A stretch of DNA of 20,177 nucleotides from a virus. This document shows positions 1 through 5,854 of this stretch, piece by piece. Positions within the stretch are counted from its first letter, which is position 1; the number at the start of each line of letters is the position of its first letter. Made by a program: the position numbers and the translations under genes. The stretch is taken from the IMG/VR virus record IMGVR_UViG_3300011116_000702, positions 1 through 20,177 of that record. One strand, 5' to 3'. The notes beneath the pieces were generated by a model. It did no database searches, was not told the origin of the DNA, and worked only from the letters and a program-made list of their open reading frames with translations.

Positions 1-2
1 AG

Positions 3-203
3 GCAGGTTCCGAGAAGGTATCGGGCTCTCCGCAGGTGGTAACCGTTGGTGACCTTATCGCGCAACTAGGCGGAGCGCTCAAGGGTGGCGCGAGAGTGCC
101 CGACACCAAGAAGGCGCGCATGTTGGTTGCAGAATTGCAGAAGGCAATTAAGAAGGAAGAAGCAAAGGAAGGCGTGAAGGCGGTTATCCCTGCCGCCGCC
201 TAA
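3..203 (+). CDS. C-terminal part of an unidentified GC-rich gene
   Basis: A frame open from the window edge reads 66 residues and stops at TAA 201-203. The true start lies outside the window. The visible part contains GDLIAQLGGALKGG, then a Lys/Glu/Ala-rich helical stretch, and ends in PAAA. No domain was recognised. The codons are strongly G/C-ending, unlike the AT-leaning genes that follow, so the gene may have a different origin or strong codon selection, as in a highly expressed gene. A strong terminator follows 12 bases after the stop, so this is the last gene of its transcript. The reading frame and terminator make a real gene likely; the function is unknown. Confidence 0.6.
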   Translation, partial: AGSEKVSGSPQVVTVGDLIAQLGGALKGGARVPDTKKARMLVAELQKAIKKEEAKEGVKAVIPAAA

Positions 204-458: not shown

Positions 459-473
459 GTCTGATAATCAGAC
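459..473. promoter_or_regulatory. 15-bp palindrome, copy 1 (operon leader)
   Basis: GTCTGATAATCAGAC is two 7-bp arms around one central base. This copy lies 20 bases upstream of the first operon start (494), before the Shine-Dalgarno GAAAGG, and downstream of the putative promoter. The recurrence of the exact sequence suggests a protein-binding site such as an operator, or an RNA hairpin with a 5-bp stem and ATAAT loop. Confidence 0.75.
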
Positions 474-753: not shown

Positions 754-966
754 ATGGAACTAGAAGGCAAGAACGATTTGCTCATGGTGCTTATTGGCTT
801 AGAAGCCGTAAGTGAATTACTAGACAGCGATGAACGCATGACCGACTATCGTAGAGATAGTTACGCCATGCTATTTAACCGAGTTGCTGAGGCTTACGCT
901 GAGTTAGCAACCGCAGAAGAAGAACACCTTGTCCAAGCACTAGCAGAAGGGTACATTGAACTATGA
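754..966 (+). CDS. Small acidic helical protein of unknown function
   Basis: A 70-residue protein with no Cys and no membrane segment. It is dominated by Glu, Asp, Leu and Ala and probably forms two or three helices, including FNRVAEAYAELATAEEEHL near residues 41-59. A GAAGG Shine-Dalgarno lies within the end of the previous gene, and the TGA stop overlaps the next start as ATGA (963-966), indicating translational coupling to the amidoligase-like gene. No homologous family was recognised. Its position between a membrane peptide and the amidoligase could make it an accessory factor, but that is inference from order alone. Confidence 0.72.
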   Translation: MELEGKNDLLMVLIGLEAVSELLDSDERMTDYRRDSYAMLFNRVAEAYAELATAEEEHLVQALAEGYIEL

Positions 967-2447
967 CAGGTTATGGCTTTATAGGGATTGGGATTTGCCA
1001 CCGCTGTTCTAATCCTGAGTTTCTATTCGTAATCTCTGACTCCGACTATGAAGGAGACCAGATACCGCGCTGTGGTGATTGCCACAGTTACTATCGCGAG
1101 ACACCTGCACCAAGAATTACACTTATGGATGAAACTCCACTGTGTCAGGCTTGTGATAGACCTGAGTTCATAGATGAGAACGCACTCAGTCCATTAGACC
1201 GCAACCGCTGGTCTTTGATACCTGCTCTCTTGTCTGATAATCAGACGGAGATAACAGTTCACCTAGACTGTTCAACTTCATCTCGTCGCAGTGACAGTTG
1301 CACAGATTGCGATAGCGTCTATGCAACTATACGAAATAGGAATTGGCGTTCACTATCACCGATTACTAATTCACAATTTGCTACACTTACTCGGATAGAA
1401 GGAGATTACCGCTGTGACAGTTGTACTTCAGCGTTCTACCAAGAAAACGGTGGTGAGCATAACTATGTCTCATGCCCCGCTTGTGAGGACATCATCCACC
1501 GAGACAATGGATTATGGTTTGACGACTCGCTCTACTGTGAGAATTGCCACGACTCTAATGTCTACGACTGTAACGAGTGTGGTGAGTCACAGTGGGACGG
1601 CAACGGACACGACTGTTCAGAAGATGATGACGAGGACAACGGTTCAATCCATAGTTACTCGTACCGACCTAGCCCCTTCTTCTTTGGTAAGGGACAGTAC
1701 TATCTCGGCTTTGAGTTAGAAGTCGAAGCACGCAATGGCTCACGCTATCAAGGTGCTGAGATAGCGCAGAACGAGTTAGGCGGTCATGCTTACATGAAGG
1801 ATGACGGCTCACTCTCTGACGGCTTCGAGATAGTCACGCATCCTCACACCTTGTCTGATTATCAGACAGACTTCAACTGGGAGTTCATTCCTAAGTTAAA
1901 GCGTGAGGGTTTCCGTTCATGGAACACTGATACCTGTGGGCTTCATGTCCATGTATCGCGTACCGCTTTCGGTAGTGGTGAAAGTGCATGGGGTAGGTCT
2001 GACCGCGAGCAGATTATCCTCAAGAAGCAAGCACATGAGTTACGCTTCATGAAACTTATCTACGACAACCAAAGACAGGTTGAGCGTATCGCTGGGCGTA
2101 GTGGTAATCACTATGCAACTTTCCAAGACAAGGGCAAACTTGTCGAGAAGGTTAAGTATGGAAACCAAACTAACGGCAGGTACTCGGCTATCAACACCGA
2201 GAATGATGCCACGCTAGAGGTGCGTGTGTTCAAGGGTTCACTGCGTAAGGAGAGAGTGCTATCTGCACTTGAGTTCGTTACTGCATCCGTTGAGTACACT
2301 CGTGACCTCAAGGTTACATCCAAGAACCAAGCCCTGACATGGCTGGCGTTCACAGGGTATGTCTCAACTCACCTTGATACTTATCCAAACTTAGCACTAA
2401 TCATGAGCGAGTCCTTCGCTTCTGACAACAACCCTAATGAAAACTAA
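963..2447 (+). CDS. Amidoligase-like protein with N-terminal Cys-pair (zinc-ribbon) array
   Basis: A 494-residue protein in two parts. Residues 1-220 hold many Cys-x2-Cys pairs (12/15, 37/40, 61/64, 113/116, 151/154, 171/174, 192/195, 203/206), consistent with tandem zinc ribbons for binding a protein or nucleic acid. After an acidic linker (219-226), residues about 245-470 match the glutamine-synthetase-fold amidoligase family: GFELEVE (249-255), DDGSL (280-284), GFEIVT (287-292), CGLHVHVS (325-332), INTEN (410-414) and TLEVRVFKGSL (417-427). Family members are predicted to use ATP to join a carboxylate to an amine. The start overlaps the previous stop as ATGA. Two 15-bp palindromes lie inside the coding sequence, and the next gene is a glutamine amidotransferase. 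The family assignment is from motifs; the substrate is unknown. Confidence 0.82.
   Translation: MTGYGFIGIGICHRCSNPEFLFVISDSDYEGDQIPRCGDCHSYYRETPAPRITLMDETPLCQACDRPEFIDENALSPLDRNRWSLIPALLSDNQTEITVHLDCSTSSRRSDSCTDCDSVYATIRNRNWRSLSPITNSQFATLTRIEGDYRCDSCTSAFYQENGGEHNYVSCPACEDIIHRDNGLWFDDSLYCENCHDSNVYDCNECGESQWDGNGHDCSEDDDEDNGSIHSYSYRPSPFFFGKGQYYLGFELEVEARNGSRYQGAEIAQNELGGHAYMKDDGSLSDGFEIVTHPHTLSDYQTDFNWEFIPKLKREGFRSWNTDTCGLHVHVSRTAFGSGESAWGRSDREQIILKKQAHELRFMKLIYDNQRQVERIAGRSGNHYATFQDKGKLVEKVKYGNQTNGRYSAINTENDATLEVRVFKGSLRKERVLSALEFVTASVEYTRDLKVTSKNQALTWLAFTGYVSTHLDTYPNLALIMSESFASDNNPNEN
1232..1246. repeat. 15-bp palindrome, copy 2 (inside the amidoligase gene)
   Basis: An exact GTCTGATAATCAGAC within the coding sequence, read in frame as part of Leu-Ser-Asp-Asn-Gln-Thr (residues 90-95), in the linker between Cys pairs. 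Confidence 0.75.
1853..1867. repeat. 15-bp palindrome, copy 3 (reverse orientation, inside the amidoligase gene)
   Basis: GTCTGATTATCAGAC, the exact reverse complement of the other copies. It is read in the same codon phase as Leu-Ser-Asp-Tyr-Gln-Thr (residues 297-302), next to the catalytic-domain motif GFEIVT. Confidence 0.75.
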
Positions 2448-2449
2448 CC

Positions 2450-2464
2450 GTCTGATAATCAGAC
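2450..2464. promoter_or_regulatory. 15-bp palindrome, copy 4 (between amidoligase and GATase genes)
   Basis: An exact GTCTGATAATCAGAC beginning two bases after the amidoligase stop and ending 16 bases before the glutamine amidotransferase start (2481), just ahead of its purine-rich Shine-Dalgarno. It fills most of the 33-base gap between the two enzymes and could control the second one separately. Confidence 0.78.
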
Positions 2465-2480
2465 AGAAAAGAGTAAGCCA

Positions 2481-3314
2481 ATGTGTATGTTATGTGTAAT
2501 TCCACCCAATGTAACTCCGTCTCGTGAGAAGTTAGAAAACTCTGCGCTCAACAATCCACACGGATTTGGTTTCGCAATCGTAGTACCTAGTGAGAACCGT
2601 ATCCATAGTGAGCGCACTATGAACCCTGACACCTCTATCAATCGCTTCTTAGAGATGCGTGCAAAGTATCCTGAGGGGTACGCTATGTGGCACGCACGAC
2701 TAGCCACTCATGGCTCAACGACAGTGGACAACTGTCACCCATTCAAGGTAGGTCATGATGAGCAGACTTACCTAGCGCACAATGGCATCCTGCCTATTAT
2801 CGAACCGCAAGGTGACTTGCGTAGCGATACTCGTATCTTTGCAGAGGACTTGCTACCTGCTATCGGTGGCGTATCTGCACTAGATAACGACCAAGTATTC
2901 AATCTTATGGAAGACTTTACCTCAGGGTCAAAGGTCGCCATTCTCACAGTAGACCCACGCGCTAAGCATCAGTGCTACCTTATCCACGAGAACAAGGGTA
3001 ATGTAGATGAGTCGGGTGTGTGGTGGTCTAATGACTCCTGCTACCTGCCTACCTATGGCAACTCATGGAGTAGTGTTCAGCCACTTAACTTCGGACTCAA
3101 AAATGATGAGGAGTTCTGGGCTGAGTGCCTTGTCTGTGAAACTATCCTGCTAGAAGAACCCAAAGACCCTTCTGCTAAGGACTTCTGCACTACCTGTGGT
3201 AGTTGCTGGGGCTGTTCTACTTACAAGACCGATTGCCTATGCTATCTCGGTAGCAACTCTAGCAAAGGTGGCAACTGGTGGAACGCTGACTCACAAGGAG
3301 CGTGGGGCTGGTGA
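2481..3314 (+). CDS. Class II (N-terminal Cys) glutamine amidotransferase
   Basis: A 277-residue Ntn-hydrolase-type glutaminase. Cys2 directly follows the initiator Met and would become the N-terminal nucleophile. Other family features are GFGFAIV (28-34), WHARLATHG (70-78), NCHPF (84-88), the oxyanion-hole-like AHNGI (99-103) and SDTRIF (115-120). Such enzymes hydrolyse glutamine and pass ammonia or the amide on to a partner. After about residue 210 there is an unusual Cys-rich tail with Cys at 216, 219, 236, 239, 242, 245, 252 and 254, likely a zinc-binding module, ending in Trp/Gly-rich sequence. Upstream are a GAAAAGAG Shine-Dalgarno and palindrome copy 4. Its pairing with the amidoligase-like gene suggests a joint amide-forming or amide-exchange pathway. 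Confidence 0.87.
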   Translation: MCMLCVIPPNVTPSREKLENSALNNPHGFGFAIVVPSENRIHSERTMNPDTSINRFLEMRAKYPEGYAMWHARLATHGSTTVDNCHPFKVGHDEQTYLAHNGILPIIEPQGDLRSDTRIFAEDLLPAIGGVSALDNDQVFNLMEDFTSGSKVAILTVDPRAKHQCYLIHENKGNVDESGVWWSNDSCYLPTYGNSWSSVQPLNFGLKNDEEFWAECLVCETILLEEPKDPSAKDFCTTCGSCWGCSTYKTDCLCYLGSNSSKGGNWWNADSQGAWGW

Positions 3315-3496
3315 GTAGAGAGCATAAGCCTGTACCACCTACGCCCTATTACTATGGCGTACGCGCTGAACTATTCCTGCATGATGCTGAGGAAGCATTA
3401 CGGCAGGGAGATACAACCGAACACGCAAGACTTATGGTGCGAGCCACGCACTATGCAGGACTTGCCCAACAACTACCAATGGAAGGTCACGCATGA
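3311..3496 (+). CDS. Small helical protein of unknown function
   Basis: A 61-residue protein. GTG 3311 is chosen because it overlaps the amidotransferase stop as GTGA and has AAGGAG (3295-3300) ten bases upstream. An in-frame GTG at 3302 would sit almost on the Shine-Dalgarno. The N-terminus is Pro/Tyr-rich (KPVPPTPYYYG), followed by two probable helices with Ala, Leu, Glu and Arg. There are no Cys residues or membrane segments. Its stop overlaps the next start as ATGA. It is coupled to the amidotransferase by position. No family was recognised. Confidence 0.68.
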   Translation: MSREHKPVPPTPYYYGVRAELFLHDAEEALRQGDTTEHARLMVRATHYAGLAQQLPMEGHA

Positions 3497-3645
3497 CCAA
3501 CTATAAAAAGACGCGTTGCTGGAAGTGTGACCTCGACTTAGTTGTCGAGGCACACGACTACGCAGAACGCAATTACTGTACCTCATGTGCATGGGATAAA
3601 CTCATGCTCGTGTCTGATAATCAGACAGAAGGTACAGATGTTTGA
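3493..3645 (+). CDS. Zinc-ribbon microprotein (50 aa)
   Basis: A 50-residue protein beginning at ATG 3493, overlapping the previous stop as ATGA. Cys9-x2-Cys12 (CWKC) and Cys29-x2-Cys32 (CTSC) form a minimal treble-clef or zinc-ribbon four-Cys site. The C-terminus, VSDNQTEG, is encoded by palindrome copy 5, and its TGA stop lies inside the first codons of the WhiB gene. Such small ribbons usually bind nucleic acid or partner proteins. The exact role is unknown. The overlaps on both sides and the Cys pattern make a real gene likely. Confidence 0.72.
   Translation: MTNYKKTRCWKCDLDLVVEAHDYAERNYCTSCAWDKLMLVSDNQTEGTDV
3612..3626. promoter_or_regulatory. 15-bp palindrome, copy 5 (upstream of whiB)
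   Basis: An exact GTCTGATAATCAGAC ending 11 bases before the WhiB start. It is followed directly by the Shine-Dalgarno AGAAGG (3627-3632). It also codes for Ser-Asp-Asn-Gln-Thr at the end of the 50-residue zinc ribbon. A protein or hairpin here could limit ribosome access to the WhiB start. Confidence 0.78.
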
Positions 3646-3982
3646 TAATCACTTACCAATGTTCACCAATGAAGCACTGTGTGCTGATAAAGGTTACAAC
3701 CCTGATTGGTGGCATCCGCAAGAGTTAGCAGGTCGTGGTCGCAAATGGAGTCACACTCCTGAGGCTACGCTTGCTCGCTCAATCTGTTCAGCCTGCCCTG
3801 CCAAGAAAGAGTGCTTGGAGTATTCATTACAATACTTTAACCTCACTGGTATTTGGGCTGGTACTGACAGACTAGAAAGACACGCTATGCAGAAGACTCT
3901 AAATATGACTCCAATAAATTGGACAGATACTTATGAGTCTGCTGTGTTTAGCGTGCCACACGAGAGGAATGAAGTTGTATAA
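3638..3982 (+). CDS. whiB: WhiB-family Fe-S transcriptional regulator
   Basis: A 114-residue protein with the four WhiB cysteines, Cys15, Cys50, Cys53 and Cys59 (C-x2-C-x5-C), which in this family hold a 4Fe-4S cluster. The G-[IV]-W turn is present as GIWAGTD (71-77), where cellular proteins often read GVWGG. WhiB proteins bind the major sigma factor and tune promoter choice; phage copies can modify host transcription. ATG 3638 is chosen because AGAAGG lies five bases upstream. An open frame upstream of it overlaps the preceding gene and lacks support. The 3' end overlaps the next microprotein. Presence of this family is the main evidence for an actinobacterial host. Confidence 0.92.
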   Translation: MFDNHLPMFTNEALCADKGYNPDWWHPQELAGRGRKWSHTPEATLARSICSACPAKKECLEYSLQYFNLTGIWAGTDRLERHAMQKTLNMTPINWTDTYESAVFSVPHERNEVV

Positions 3983-4546: not shown

Positions 4547-4561
4547 GTCTGATAATCAGAC
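4547..4561. promoter_or_regulatory. 15-bp palindrome, copy 6 (end of operon)
   Basis: An exact GTCTGATAATCAGAC three bases after the last stop of the rightward operon, ahead of the hairpin and terminator. It has no downstream gene to control in the rightward direction. That argues against a purely start-site function and suggests a roadblock, an RNA 3'-end element or an architectural site. Confidence 0.75.
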
Positions 4562-4852: not shown

Positions 4853-5223
4853 GGTACAATTAGTTTCTTCTCAGGCACTAGCAGCCCCGACTTTTTGGCA
4901 GCAGCGCGCTTCTCGGCGCGGTTTGCAGGGGTCGGCCCCGCGGGAGCGGAAGTTTGTGTTGGGCTGAGATTGCCGTCCTGCTCAGGTTGTTCCTGATAAT
5001 CCTCAGAGAAGATTGCGTTAGCCTGAATGAGGTCCACATACTGGTGGAACAAGTCAATGAACACACCAACCTGTGTGAGCAGATTCAGTGTGACATCACG
5101 TGCATCAGTTAGAAGTTTAACATCCTCTTCTGAGTGAGCGTCAATCCATTCCTTGTTCTGTACTGTCAAGTCCAAGTTCTTGTAAATCTCCGTCACTTCG
5201 TGTATCTGCATTTTTCTGCTCAT
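4849..5223 (-). CDS. Protein of unknown function with helical core and basic disordered tail
   Basis: A 124-residue protein. ATG 5223 is chosen because GGAGGAAG lies just upstream; an open frame extends further but lacks a comparable site. Residues about 5-80 look helical and acidic (DAHSEEDVKLLTDARDV, then TQVGVFIDLFHQYVDL). The tail is Pro/Thr/Ala-rich, then basic (ANRAEKRAAAKKSG), suggesting a flexible linker and a nucleic-acid-binding or tethering end. Its first 83 bases overlap the 3' end of the sigma-like gene in another frame. Its stop is coupled to the next microgene. The position beside the sigma-like factor suggests an associated regulator, which is inference only. Confidence 0.72.
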   Translation of the reverse strand: MSRKMQIHEVTEIYKNLDLTVQNKEWIDAHSEEDVKLLTDARDVTLNLLTQVGVFIDLFHQYVDLIQANAIFSEDYQEQPEQDGNLSPTQTSAPAGPTPANRAEKRAAAKKSGLLVPEKKLIVP

Positions 5224-5854
5224 TAAGTTCTTCCTCCGTGTAGTCGCGTTCCTTGCGTGGACGTGTGCCACCCAGGAAATTTAATAGATTGTTAACCGCT
5301 CTGTTCACACGCATACGAGATGCATCTTCACTGATGTCTAGTTCCTTAGCAAGAGTTACATTGTCACAACCATCACCAAAGCGTAGATAAACAATTGTTA
5401 GTTGCTCTTGAGTTAAGCGATTCAATGCTTTGTCAATATCTGCCATCATAGCAAACCAATTGCCACCCTCTGATGCAACCTTCTTAGCCTTAGTAAAACC
5501 TAGTTCAGTCATAGCAGGTGCGTTAAGGTCTCTACGTAACACAGCAGGCAGCAACAACTCTACAACCTCACGGTCATAGTAATAGTTATCCTCTACCTTG
5601 TAACCAACAGCACGAGCCTTCTCACGCTGACAGTAATCCTTAGCAGCATTACGCAACGACCTAGCAATCAACTTATCAGACTCTTTGCCATCCTTGATGT
5701 TCCACGTAGTAACCTTATTAGGATGAGTTAAGAACCAAATCCATAGTTCCTGACGTATGTCATCTGCATCGCACATGTGAAACTTACGTGAGTATTCATA
5801 GGCAATAGCACCGACCATGCCTTCATACTGTAATGGGTCAATTGGAGTTACCAC
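5141..5854 (-). CDS. Phage RNA polymerase sigma-like factor
   Basis: A 237-residue protein with the layout of a two-domain sigma factor. Residues about 10-85 resemble region 2, including DADDIRQELWIWFL (29-42) and a basic RSLRNAAKDYCQREKARAV stretch. Residues 145-195 resemble region 4, with LTQEQLTIVYLRFGDG followed by a helix-turn-helix (VTLAKELDISEDASRMRVNRAVNNLL). Such proteins direct RNA polymerase to particular promoters, possibly the phage late genes. The start is GTG 5854, overlapping the preceding stop by seven bases, with no strong Shine-Dalgarno. The acidic C-terminal tail after residue 200 is coded in the overlap with the next gene. A general DNA-binding sigma-like regulator remains possible. 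Confidence 0.75.
   Translation of the reverse strand: MVTPIDPLQYEGMVGAIAYEYSRKFHMCDADDIRQELWIWFLTHPNKVTTWNIKDGKESDKLIARSLRNAAKDYCQREKARAVGYKVEDNYYYDREVVELLLPAVLRRDLNAPAMTELGFTKAKKVASEGGNWFAMMADIDKALNRLTQEQLTIVYLRFGDGCDNVTLAKELDISEDASRMRVNRAVNNLLNFLGGTRPRKERDYTEEELNEQKNADTRSDGDLQELGLDSTEQGMD

What the first reader, a model, noticed from the sequence alone, without database searches (positions are those of the whole stretch)
963..3314. Phage amidoligase and class II glutamine amidotransferase pair with added zinc modules
Two adjacent genes encode a glutamine-synthetase-fold amidoligase-like protein (GFELEVE, GFEIVT, CGLHVHVS and EVRVFKGS motifs) and an N-terminal-Cys glutaminase (Cys2, WHARLATHG, AHNGI). 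They sit in one operon, separated only by a palindromic site. Members of both families handle amide bonds, so the pair could amidate, ligate or tag a protein, peptide or wall component. Both carry extra Cys-rich modules, an eight-pair array in front of the ligase and a Cys-rich tail on the glutaminase, which may direct them to a shared target. The neighbouring small genes may be partners or substrates.
Basis: partly seen in the sequence, partly recalled or inferred. Interest (0 to 1): 0.8.

Follow-up and report, generated by a model that had tools for sequence, protein, structure and literature searches.

The report
Phage zinc-amidoligase and glutaminase gene pair
Two neighbouring phage genes encode an ATP-driven amide-forming enzyme with a zinc-finger-like front end and a partner that releases ammonia from glutamine; they travel together through phages, plasmids and mobile elements of many bacteria, but nobody yet knows what they amidate.

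Summary
ORF 963-2447 is an Amidoligase_2 / glutamine-synthetase-fold ligase behind eight CxxC pairs. ORF 2481-3314 is a class II glutaminase with an intact Cys2 active site and a Cys-rich tail. Profiles, predicted folds and catalytic residues agree. The pair is one of the most conserved features of these phages. The ligase sits just upstream of the glutaminase in all 76 viral loci with upstream sequence, and the reverse holds in all 79 loci found from the ligase. It also occurs in Mycobacterium phage Marvin, mycobacterial plasmids and many clostridial mobile elements. Ligase and glutaminase distances track each other (r 0.94). The same gene order is the core of the phiEco32/LUZ24 cassette, so the kind is known; this is a zinc-armed two-gene variant. 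The best reading is a two-subunit glutamine-dependent amidotransferase. Its substrate is unknown and the cell-wall/superinfection idea is untested. In passing, the palindrome between the genes proved to be one of six to eleven phage-specific operators. Their sequence covaries with a new roughly 215-aa protein at the head of the operon (partial Mantel 0.57), which looks like a stoperator-type regulator with switching specificity.

The parts
963..2447 (+). zinc-amidoligase (494 aa): N-terminal Cys array (aa 12-218) and glutamine-synthetase-fold ligase domain (aa ~240-480)
   Evidence: PHROG 16683 8.8e-37 and 22302 2.1e-32; Pfam Amidoligase_2; AF2 pLDDT 89.5, Foldseek YbdK/GS/PafA/Dop
996..1616 (+). 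Cys-rich array of the ligase, eight CxxC pairs plus H100, C103, C218 (putative zinc modules)
   Evidence: C/H positions nearly invariant in 57 relatives; weak match to LIM-type zinc domains in PDB
1695..2402 (+). amidoligase catalytic domain (GxExE, DGS, GFE, HxH, ExR)
   Evidence: 79 viral/phage rows and 78 cellular-set rows keep G249, E251, E253, D281, S283, G287, H328, H330, R379, N411, T417, E419, R421
2481..3314 (+). class II glutamine amidotransferase (glutaminase), 277 aa
   Evidence: GATase_4 5.7e-6, PHROG 25883 7.9e-40, AF2 pLDDT 82 and Foldseek GlmS 6e-8, GFAT, PurF, EgtC; C2, R73, T76, N101, G102, D116 79/79
3126..3242 (+). Cys-rich tail of the glutaminase (CxxC..CxxCxxCxxC..CxC)
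   Evidence: C216, C219, C236, C239, C242, C254 invariant in 63 relatives
2450..2464 (+). 15-bp palindromic operator-like site between the two genes
   Evidence: phage-specific variants at the same place in relatives
1232..1246 (+). operator-like palindrome inside the ligase gene (read as SDNQT)
1853..1867 (+). operator-like palindrome inside the ligase gene (read as SDYQT)

Best explanation
The two genes encode a two-subunit, glutamine-dependent, ATP-driven amidotransferase of phages and other mobile elements. The class II subunit hydrolyses glutamine at Cys2 and releases ammonia. The glutamine-synthetase-fold subunit activates a carboxylate with ATP (acyl-phosphate chemistry) and captures the ammonia as an amide. 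The Cys arrays act as zinc-bound docking modules of the complex that hold the partner and/or a large intracellular substrate. Shown here: families, folds, intact active sites, obligate pairing and co-evolution. Inferred: ammonia transfer between subunits, zinc binding, docking role and substrate. In this phage the operon also carries a WhiB-like factor and is dotted with binding sites of a phage-specific regulator, so it is probably switched as an early module.
For: Glutaminase residues equivalent to GlmS C1, R73, T76, N98, G99 and D123 are 79/79 in the viral/phage alignment, and C2, H71, R73, T76, H100, N101 and G102 are 97-99% in the cellular set; the GlmS equivalence is my mapping. Ligase metal/ATP-site motifs are 99-100% conserved in the cellular set. 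Foldseek to PDB: ligase to YbdK 9.9e-7, GS, PafA, Dop, GmaS; glutaminase to GlmS 6e-8, PurF, EgtC. Adjacency: 76/76 viral loci with upstream sequence, 79/79 loci found with the ligase, 57 of 68 chromosomal pairs within about 100 bp, two mycobacterial plasmids examined. Ligase and glutaminase distances correlate at 0.943 across 68 chromosomal pairs, and in phages at partial r 0.59 after removing the sigma-factor distance, 0/2000 permutations for each. Cys modules are carried by the ligase, the glutaminase or both in the phiEco32, LUZ24, clostridial and actinophage systems, which fits a module serving the complex.
Against: No complex was modelled. One class II Ntn relative, EgtC, hydrolyses a gamma-glutamyl bond and does not feed a synthase (established knowledge; it is among the Foldseek matches). 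Ligase relatives YbdK and GmaS join carboxylates to amines, not ammonia. A C. difficile phage ligase lacks both Cys module and neighbouring glutaminase, so the ligase fold can work without this partner. Zinc was not shown.
Confidence: 0.58

Rival explanations
1. Peptide or gamma-glutamyl ligase plus trimming hydrolase: the ligase makes an isopeptide or peptide bond on peptidoglycan precursors or another surface peptide and the Ntn enzyme trims it, changing the wall so that other phages are excluded (the proposal attached to the phiEco32 cassette).
For: Same ligase-glutaminase order as phiEco32 and LUZ24. Literature repeats the superinfection idea for phiEco32, PSA-HP1 and OM43 phages (PMC10580990, PMC5498523). 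A MAG contig has Zn-amidoligase, glutaminase and a phiEco32-type COOH-NH2 ligase in a row. Folds include YbdK and EgtC.
Against: No ATP-grasp, GGCT or second ligase accompanies the pair in this phage family. No experiment supports wall modification. If the operator set works as a repressor array, the pair would be silent in a lysogen, where exclusion would matter most.
Confidence: 0.2
2. Peptide tagging of host or phage proteins, Pup-like: the ligase joins a small peptide or amino acid to protein side chains, and the glutaminase deamidates or recycles it.
For: PafA and Dop are among the fold matches; Cys modules could recognise proteins.
Against: No conserved small protein accompanies the pair across lineages. 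A glutaminase site specific for free glutamine fits ammonia supply better.
Confidence: 0.1
3. Auxiliary nitrogen metabolism: the genes channel ammonia or glutamine into host amino acids during infection.
For: Claimed for a Planctomycetes phage carrying amidoligase, glutaminase, glutathione synthase and GGCT (PMC10945688).
Against: Does not explain Cys modules on the ligase or its presence on clostridial mobile elements in up to six copies per genome; in the passages read, the paper's growth effect was not tied to these genes by mutation.
Confidence: 0.07

Closest known systems
phiEco32 / LUZ24 amidoligase-GATase cassette (Iyer et al. 2009 proposal; PHROG 2443 and 4736)
   Same: Amidoligase gene directly followed by class II GATase gene; motif-level homology of both proteins (hhalign 1.4e-6 and 3.5e-6 to phiEco32; 4.5e-7 and 1.9e-5 to LUZ24).
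   Different: Cassette also has COOH-NH2 ligase, RimK-like ATP-grasp and GGCT. Its ligases have no CxxC pairs and its GATases are 510-676 aa with CxxC motifs; here the ligase carries the Cys array and the GATase is 277 aa.
Mycobacterium phage Marvin gp105/gp106 and other cluster S phages
   Same: Same pair, same order, Cys modules on both proteins.
   Different: 32-34% identity; shorter Cys array; both annotated only as glutamine amidotransferase domain proteins.
OM43 (Methylophilales) phages MEP401/MEP402
   Same: Adjacent Amidoligase_2 and GATase genes; Cys motifs before the ligase.
   Different: Glutaminase of MEP402 lacks the Cys tail.
MurT-GatD peptidoglycan amidation pair
   Same: Two-gene ATP ligase plus glutaminase making an amide (established; PMC3267633).
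   Different: Mur-ligase fold and class I GATase; unrelated proteins, analogy only.
Amidoligase-GGCT genes of Firmicutes prophages (PHROG 2443/2520)
   Same: Amidoligase_2 on mobile elements (PMC11318856; Tn6164 PMC3485107).
   Different: Partner is gamma-glutamyl cyclotransferase, not a class II glutaminase.

Membership tests
Amidoligase_2 (PF12224), glutamine-synthetase-fold COOH-NH2 ligases | Profile match to the catalytic domain | tested here: met
   8e-5, 23.1 bits vs cut-off 22 for aa 239-494; whole protein 19.9 bits, below cut-off; PHROG 2443 'amidoligase' 0.0011
Amidoligase_2 (PF12224), glutamine-synthetase-fold COOH-NH2 ligases | Conserved metal/ATP-site motifs GxExE, DGS, HxH, ExR | tested here: met
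Amidoligase_2 (PF12224), glutamine-synthetase-fold COOH-NH2 ligases | Glutamine-synthetase fold | tested here: met
   Predicted model matches YbdK, GS, PafA by Foldseek, probability 1.00; TM-scores low (0.24-0.29 by query), as expected with the large extra N-terminal region
Amidoligase_2 (PF12224), glutamine-synthetase-fold COOH-NH2 ligases | ATP-dependent amide formation | not testable with these tools
   needs enzymology
Class II glutamine amidotransferases (Ntn fold) | N-terminal nucleophile Cys after Met removal | tested here: met
   MC start in 79/79; those rows were anchored on MC, but C2 is also 97% in the independently called cellular set
Class II glutamine amidotransferases (Ntn fold) | Glutamine-binding and oxyanion residues (Arg, Thr, Asn-Gly, Asp) | tested here: met
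   R73, T76, N101, G102, D116 invariant in 79
Class II glutamine amidotransferases (Ntn fold) | Glutaminase activity coupled to a synthase | not testable with these tools
   coupling inferred from adjacency and co-evolution
phiEco32-type amidoligase cassette | Amidoligase followed by class II GATase | tested here: met
   against window
phiEco32-type amidoligase cassette | Accompanying COOH-NH2 ligase (PF14395), ATP-grasp/RimK, GGCT | tested here: not met
   Pfam/PHROG scans of the window operon and clustering of neighbours show none; one MAG relative has PF14395
Zinc-binding modules (LIM-like/treble-clef) | Conserved paired Cys/His ligands | tested here: inconclusive
   Cys positions conserved and weak LIM similarity (0.0012); no metal shown
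Anti-phage defence or candidate defence system | Match to PADLOC models | tested here: not met
   no match

The most novel reading that the evidence does not exclude
The pair is the core of a widespread, so far unnamed weapon or takeover system of mobile elements: a zinc-guided, glutamine-fuelled amidotransferase that amidates a carboxylate on an intracellular macromolecule (protein or nucleic-acid-bound target) of the host or of a rival element. It would be neither wall modification nor nitrogen metabolism.
Probability: 0.3. Interest if true: 0.8.

Novelty: new variant of a known kind. Interest (0 to 1): 0.52.

Why it matters
The chemistry of phage amidoligase cassettes has been guessed at for years without a substrate. 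This family reduces the cassette to two genes, with the same order, co-evolving active sites and a built-in docking module. It also shows the pair on phages, mycobacterial plasmids and clostridial mobile elements. A two-gene system in a cultivable phage (Marvin, in a laboratory mycobacterium) makes the question directly testable by deletion, pull-down and mass spectrometry.

Tried and rejected
1) Natural ligase-glutaminase fusion in L011/L095: one ORF spans both, but it lacks the start of the glutaminase including Cys2, and the same contig has a frame-broken sigma-factor gene, so I treat it as a damaged or mis-assembled copy. 2) Peptidoglycan argument from archaea: two archaeal MAG contigs carry the pair (L247, L228), but only 1 of 196 and 1 of 29 genomes of those phyla have it, so mis-binning or viral contigs cannot be excluded and I did not use it. 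3) Defence system: no PADLOC match. 4) Conserved third gene as substrate: neighbour clustering in 79 chromosomal loci gave mainly mobile-element genes (resolvase, DUF3846, DUF960, relaxase, integrase) beyond the pair. 5) Cys tail of the glutaminase always matching the Cys array of the ligase: not so; clostridial and OM43 pairs lack the tail. 6) An alignment of ten very diverse ligases (A3) was too diverse for the genome scan; a closer one (A4) worked. 7) The 2009 amidoligase paper and the Marvin genome paper are not held, so I could not check whether Cys-array ligases were described there.

Full report
OBSERVATION. The ligase carries eight CxxC pairs before the GxExE, DGS, GFE, HxH and ExR motifs. 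Pfam Amidoligase_2 is a weak hit for the whole protein (7.1e-4, 19.9 bits) but passes its cut-off when only the catalytic part is given (8e-5, 23.1 bits); the glutaminase passes GATase_4 (5.7e-6). Both proteins belong to phage families of unknown function: PHROG 16683/22302 at 8.8e-37/2.1e-32 for the ligase and PHROG 25883 at 7.9e-40 for the glutaminase. The two genes lie 33 bp apart with a 15-bp palindrome between them, one of six copies in the first 4.6 kb.

FOLD AND ACTIVE SITES. AlphaFold2 with 57 and 63 relatives gave mean pLDDT 89.5 and 82.1. Foldseek against the PDB returned only glutamine-synthetase-superfamily enzymes as significant ligase matches (YbdK 9.9e-7, glutamine synthetases, PafA, GmaS; Dop just below). 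For the glutaminase it returned Ntn glutaminases (GlmS 6e-8, GFAT, PurF, EgtC). TM-scores are modest, as expected because both proteins carry extra Cys-rich parts. In 79 aligned viral/phage sequences the glutaminase keeps C2, R73, T76, G78, N84, H100, N101, G102 and D116 in all, and the ligase keeps its motif residues in 72-79. In the independently retrieved chromosomal set the ligase motifs are 99-100% conserved. Neither protein looks degraded.

THE PAIR IS THE UNIT. Among viral contigs found with the glutaminase, every one of the 76 with sequence upstream has the ligase there. All 79 further viral loci found with the ligase have the glutaminase next to it. Known phages with the pair are Mycobacterium cluster S (Marvin gp105/106), OM43 phages MEP401/402 and a spring podovirus; a Bifidobacterium phage has a Cys-motif ligase and a glutaminase one gene apart. 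The two mycobacterial plasmids examined, of about 155 kb, carry it. A scan of one genome per species gave 218 ligase relatives; of the 79 kept, most are clostridial, and 57 of 68 paired cases have the genes within about 100 bp. In Clostridia the neighbours are resolvases, DUF3846, DUF960, relaxases and integrases, and the system is patchy: 16 of 87 species in one family, with up to six copies in one genome. That is the pattern of a mobile-element accessory module. Ligase and glutaminase distances correlate at 0.943 across 68 chromosomal pairs, and in 34 phages at partial r 0.59 after removing the sigma-factor distance, with no permutation out of 2000 reaching either value.

CYS MODULES. Ligases of this family with an intact N-terminus have 3-10 CxxC pairs in front of the catalytic domain. 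The glutaminase tail (invariant C216, C219, C236, C239, C242, C254) is present in actinophages, Marvin and the mycobacterial plasmid read in full but absent in Clostridia and in MEP402. In phiEco32 and LUZ24 the reverse holds: the ligase has no CxxC, and the glutaminase has four and two. The Rhizobium phage and C. difficile phage proteins checked have none. I infer that the Cys modules serve the complex and not one enzyme, as docking or targeting parts. Zinc binding itself is inferred from the pattern and a weak LIM similarity (0.0012).

RELATION TO KNOWN SYSTEMS. phiEco32 and LUZ24 have, in order, COOH-NH2 ligase, a small gene, amidoligase, class II GATase, RimK-like ATP-grasp and GGCT. The pair here is the core of that cassette in the same order, with detectable but distant homology. 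One Thermoproteota MAG contig even has the zinc ligase, the glutaminase and a PF14395 ligase in a row. Literature attaches three untested functions to such genes: wall modification against superinfection (PMC10580990; PMC5498523), metabolite synthesis in Marvin (cited in PMC10580990) and nitrogen metabolism (PMC10945688). So the kind is known; the Cys-array two-gene form is a variant. I could not read the 2009 amidoligase survey and cannot exclude that it describes this form.

MECHANISM. Most likely the glutaminase makes ammonia from glutamine and the ligase uses ATP to fix it on a carboxylate. Shown: folds, intact sites, obligate co-occurrence, co-evolution. Inferred: subunit contact, ammonia transfer, zinc and substrate. 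The alternatives (gamma-glutamyl or peptide ligation with a trimming Ntn hydrolase, Pup-like tagging, nitrogen metabolism) are scored separately.

THE PALINDROMES. The palindrome is not tied to the pair. In relatives, 6-11 copies sit at the same places over about 5 kb and nowhere else in the fetched contigs (up to about 42.9 kb), but each phage has its own half-site; eleven were seen in 45 distinct phages. The first gene of the module encodes a roughly 215-aa protein with no Pfam or PHROG match; the window holds only its last codons (1-203). Half-site distance follows this protein (r 0.56) and not the glutaminase (-0.06) or ligase (-0.01); partial Mantel r is 0.57 with 0 of 2000 permutations reaching it. 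A few positions are alike within half-site groups and different between them (for example K57: 0.92 within, 0.06 between). Inside genes the sites are read as SDNQT in this phage and as YDNRT in phages of another group, which points to selection on DNA. This resembles the stoperators of cluster A mycobacteriophages (PMC9283540), but those are 13-bp asymmetric sites of a monomeric repressor; here they are palindromic. Whether these phages are temperate was not established, so repressor versus other regulator is open.

Noticed in passing
window 459-473, 1232-1246, 1853-1867, 2450-2464, 3612-3626, 4547-4561; relatives L002-L105, L273-L312: Six exact or near-exact 15-bp palindromes in the rightward early module; each related phage carries its own half-site (11 kinds) at the same positions, confined to this module: a stoperator-like array whose specificity has switched as a set.
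   Followed up: yes
window 1-203 (C-terminal fragment); complete in L291:6238-6882 and L304:10250-10864: A roughly 215-aa protein without Pfam or PHROG match heads the module and covaries with the palindrome half-site (partial Mantel 0.57, 0/2000), with group-specific residues; likely the DNA-binding regulator.
   Followed up: partly
window 3638-3982: WhiB-like factor (Pfam Whib 1.3e-10) in the same operon, pointing to an actinobacterial host.
   Followed up: no
window 3493-3645: 50-aa two-CxxC protein with weak RNHCP similarity (0.0014), containing one of the palindromes in its reading frame.
   Followed up: no
window 5141-5854 (-): Phage-encoded sigma-factor-like protein (Sigma70_r4_2 4.4e-6) facing the module, present in all 20 related contigs tested.
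   Followed up: partly
L110:5737-6849 and neighbours: C. difficile phage AR1086-1 (and plasmid-like records) has a Cys-poor amidoligase (no CxxC) without glutaminase, next to RlaP and not far from KptA RNA-repair genes.
   Followed up: no
L228:3-4308: MAG contig with zinc-amidoligase, small gene, glutaminase and phiEco32-type COOH-NH2 ligase in a row, a link between the two-gene form and the large cassette.
   Followed up: partly
L109:3649-7137: Rhizobium phage RHph_N3_13 has amidoligase, ATP-grasp and glutaminase interleaved with small genes, plus a second glutaminase about 5 kb upstream.
   Followed up: no
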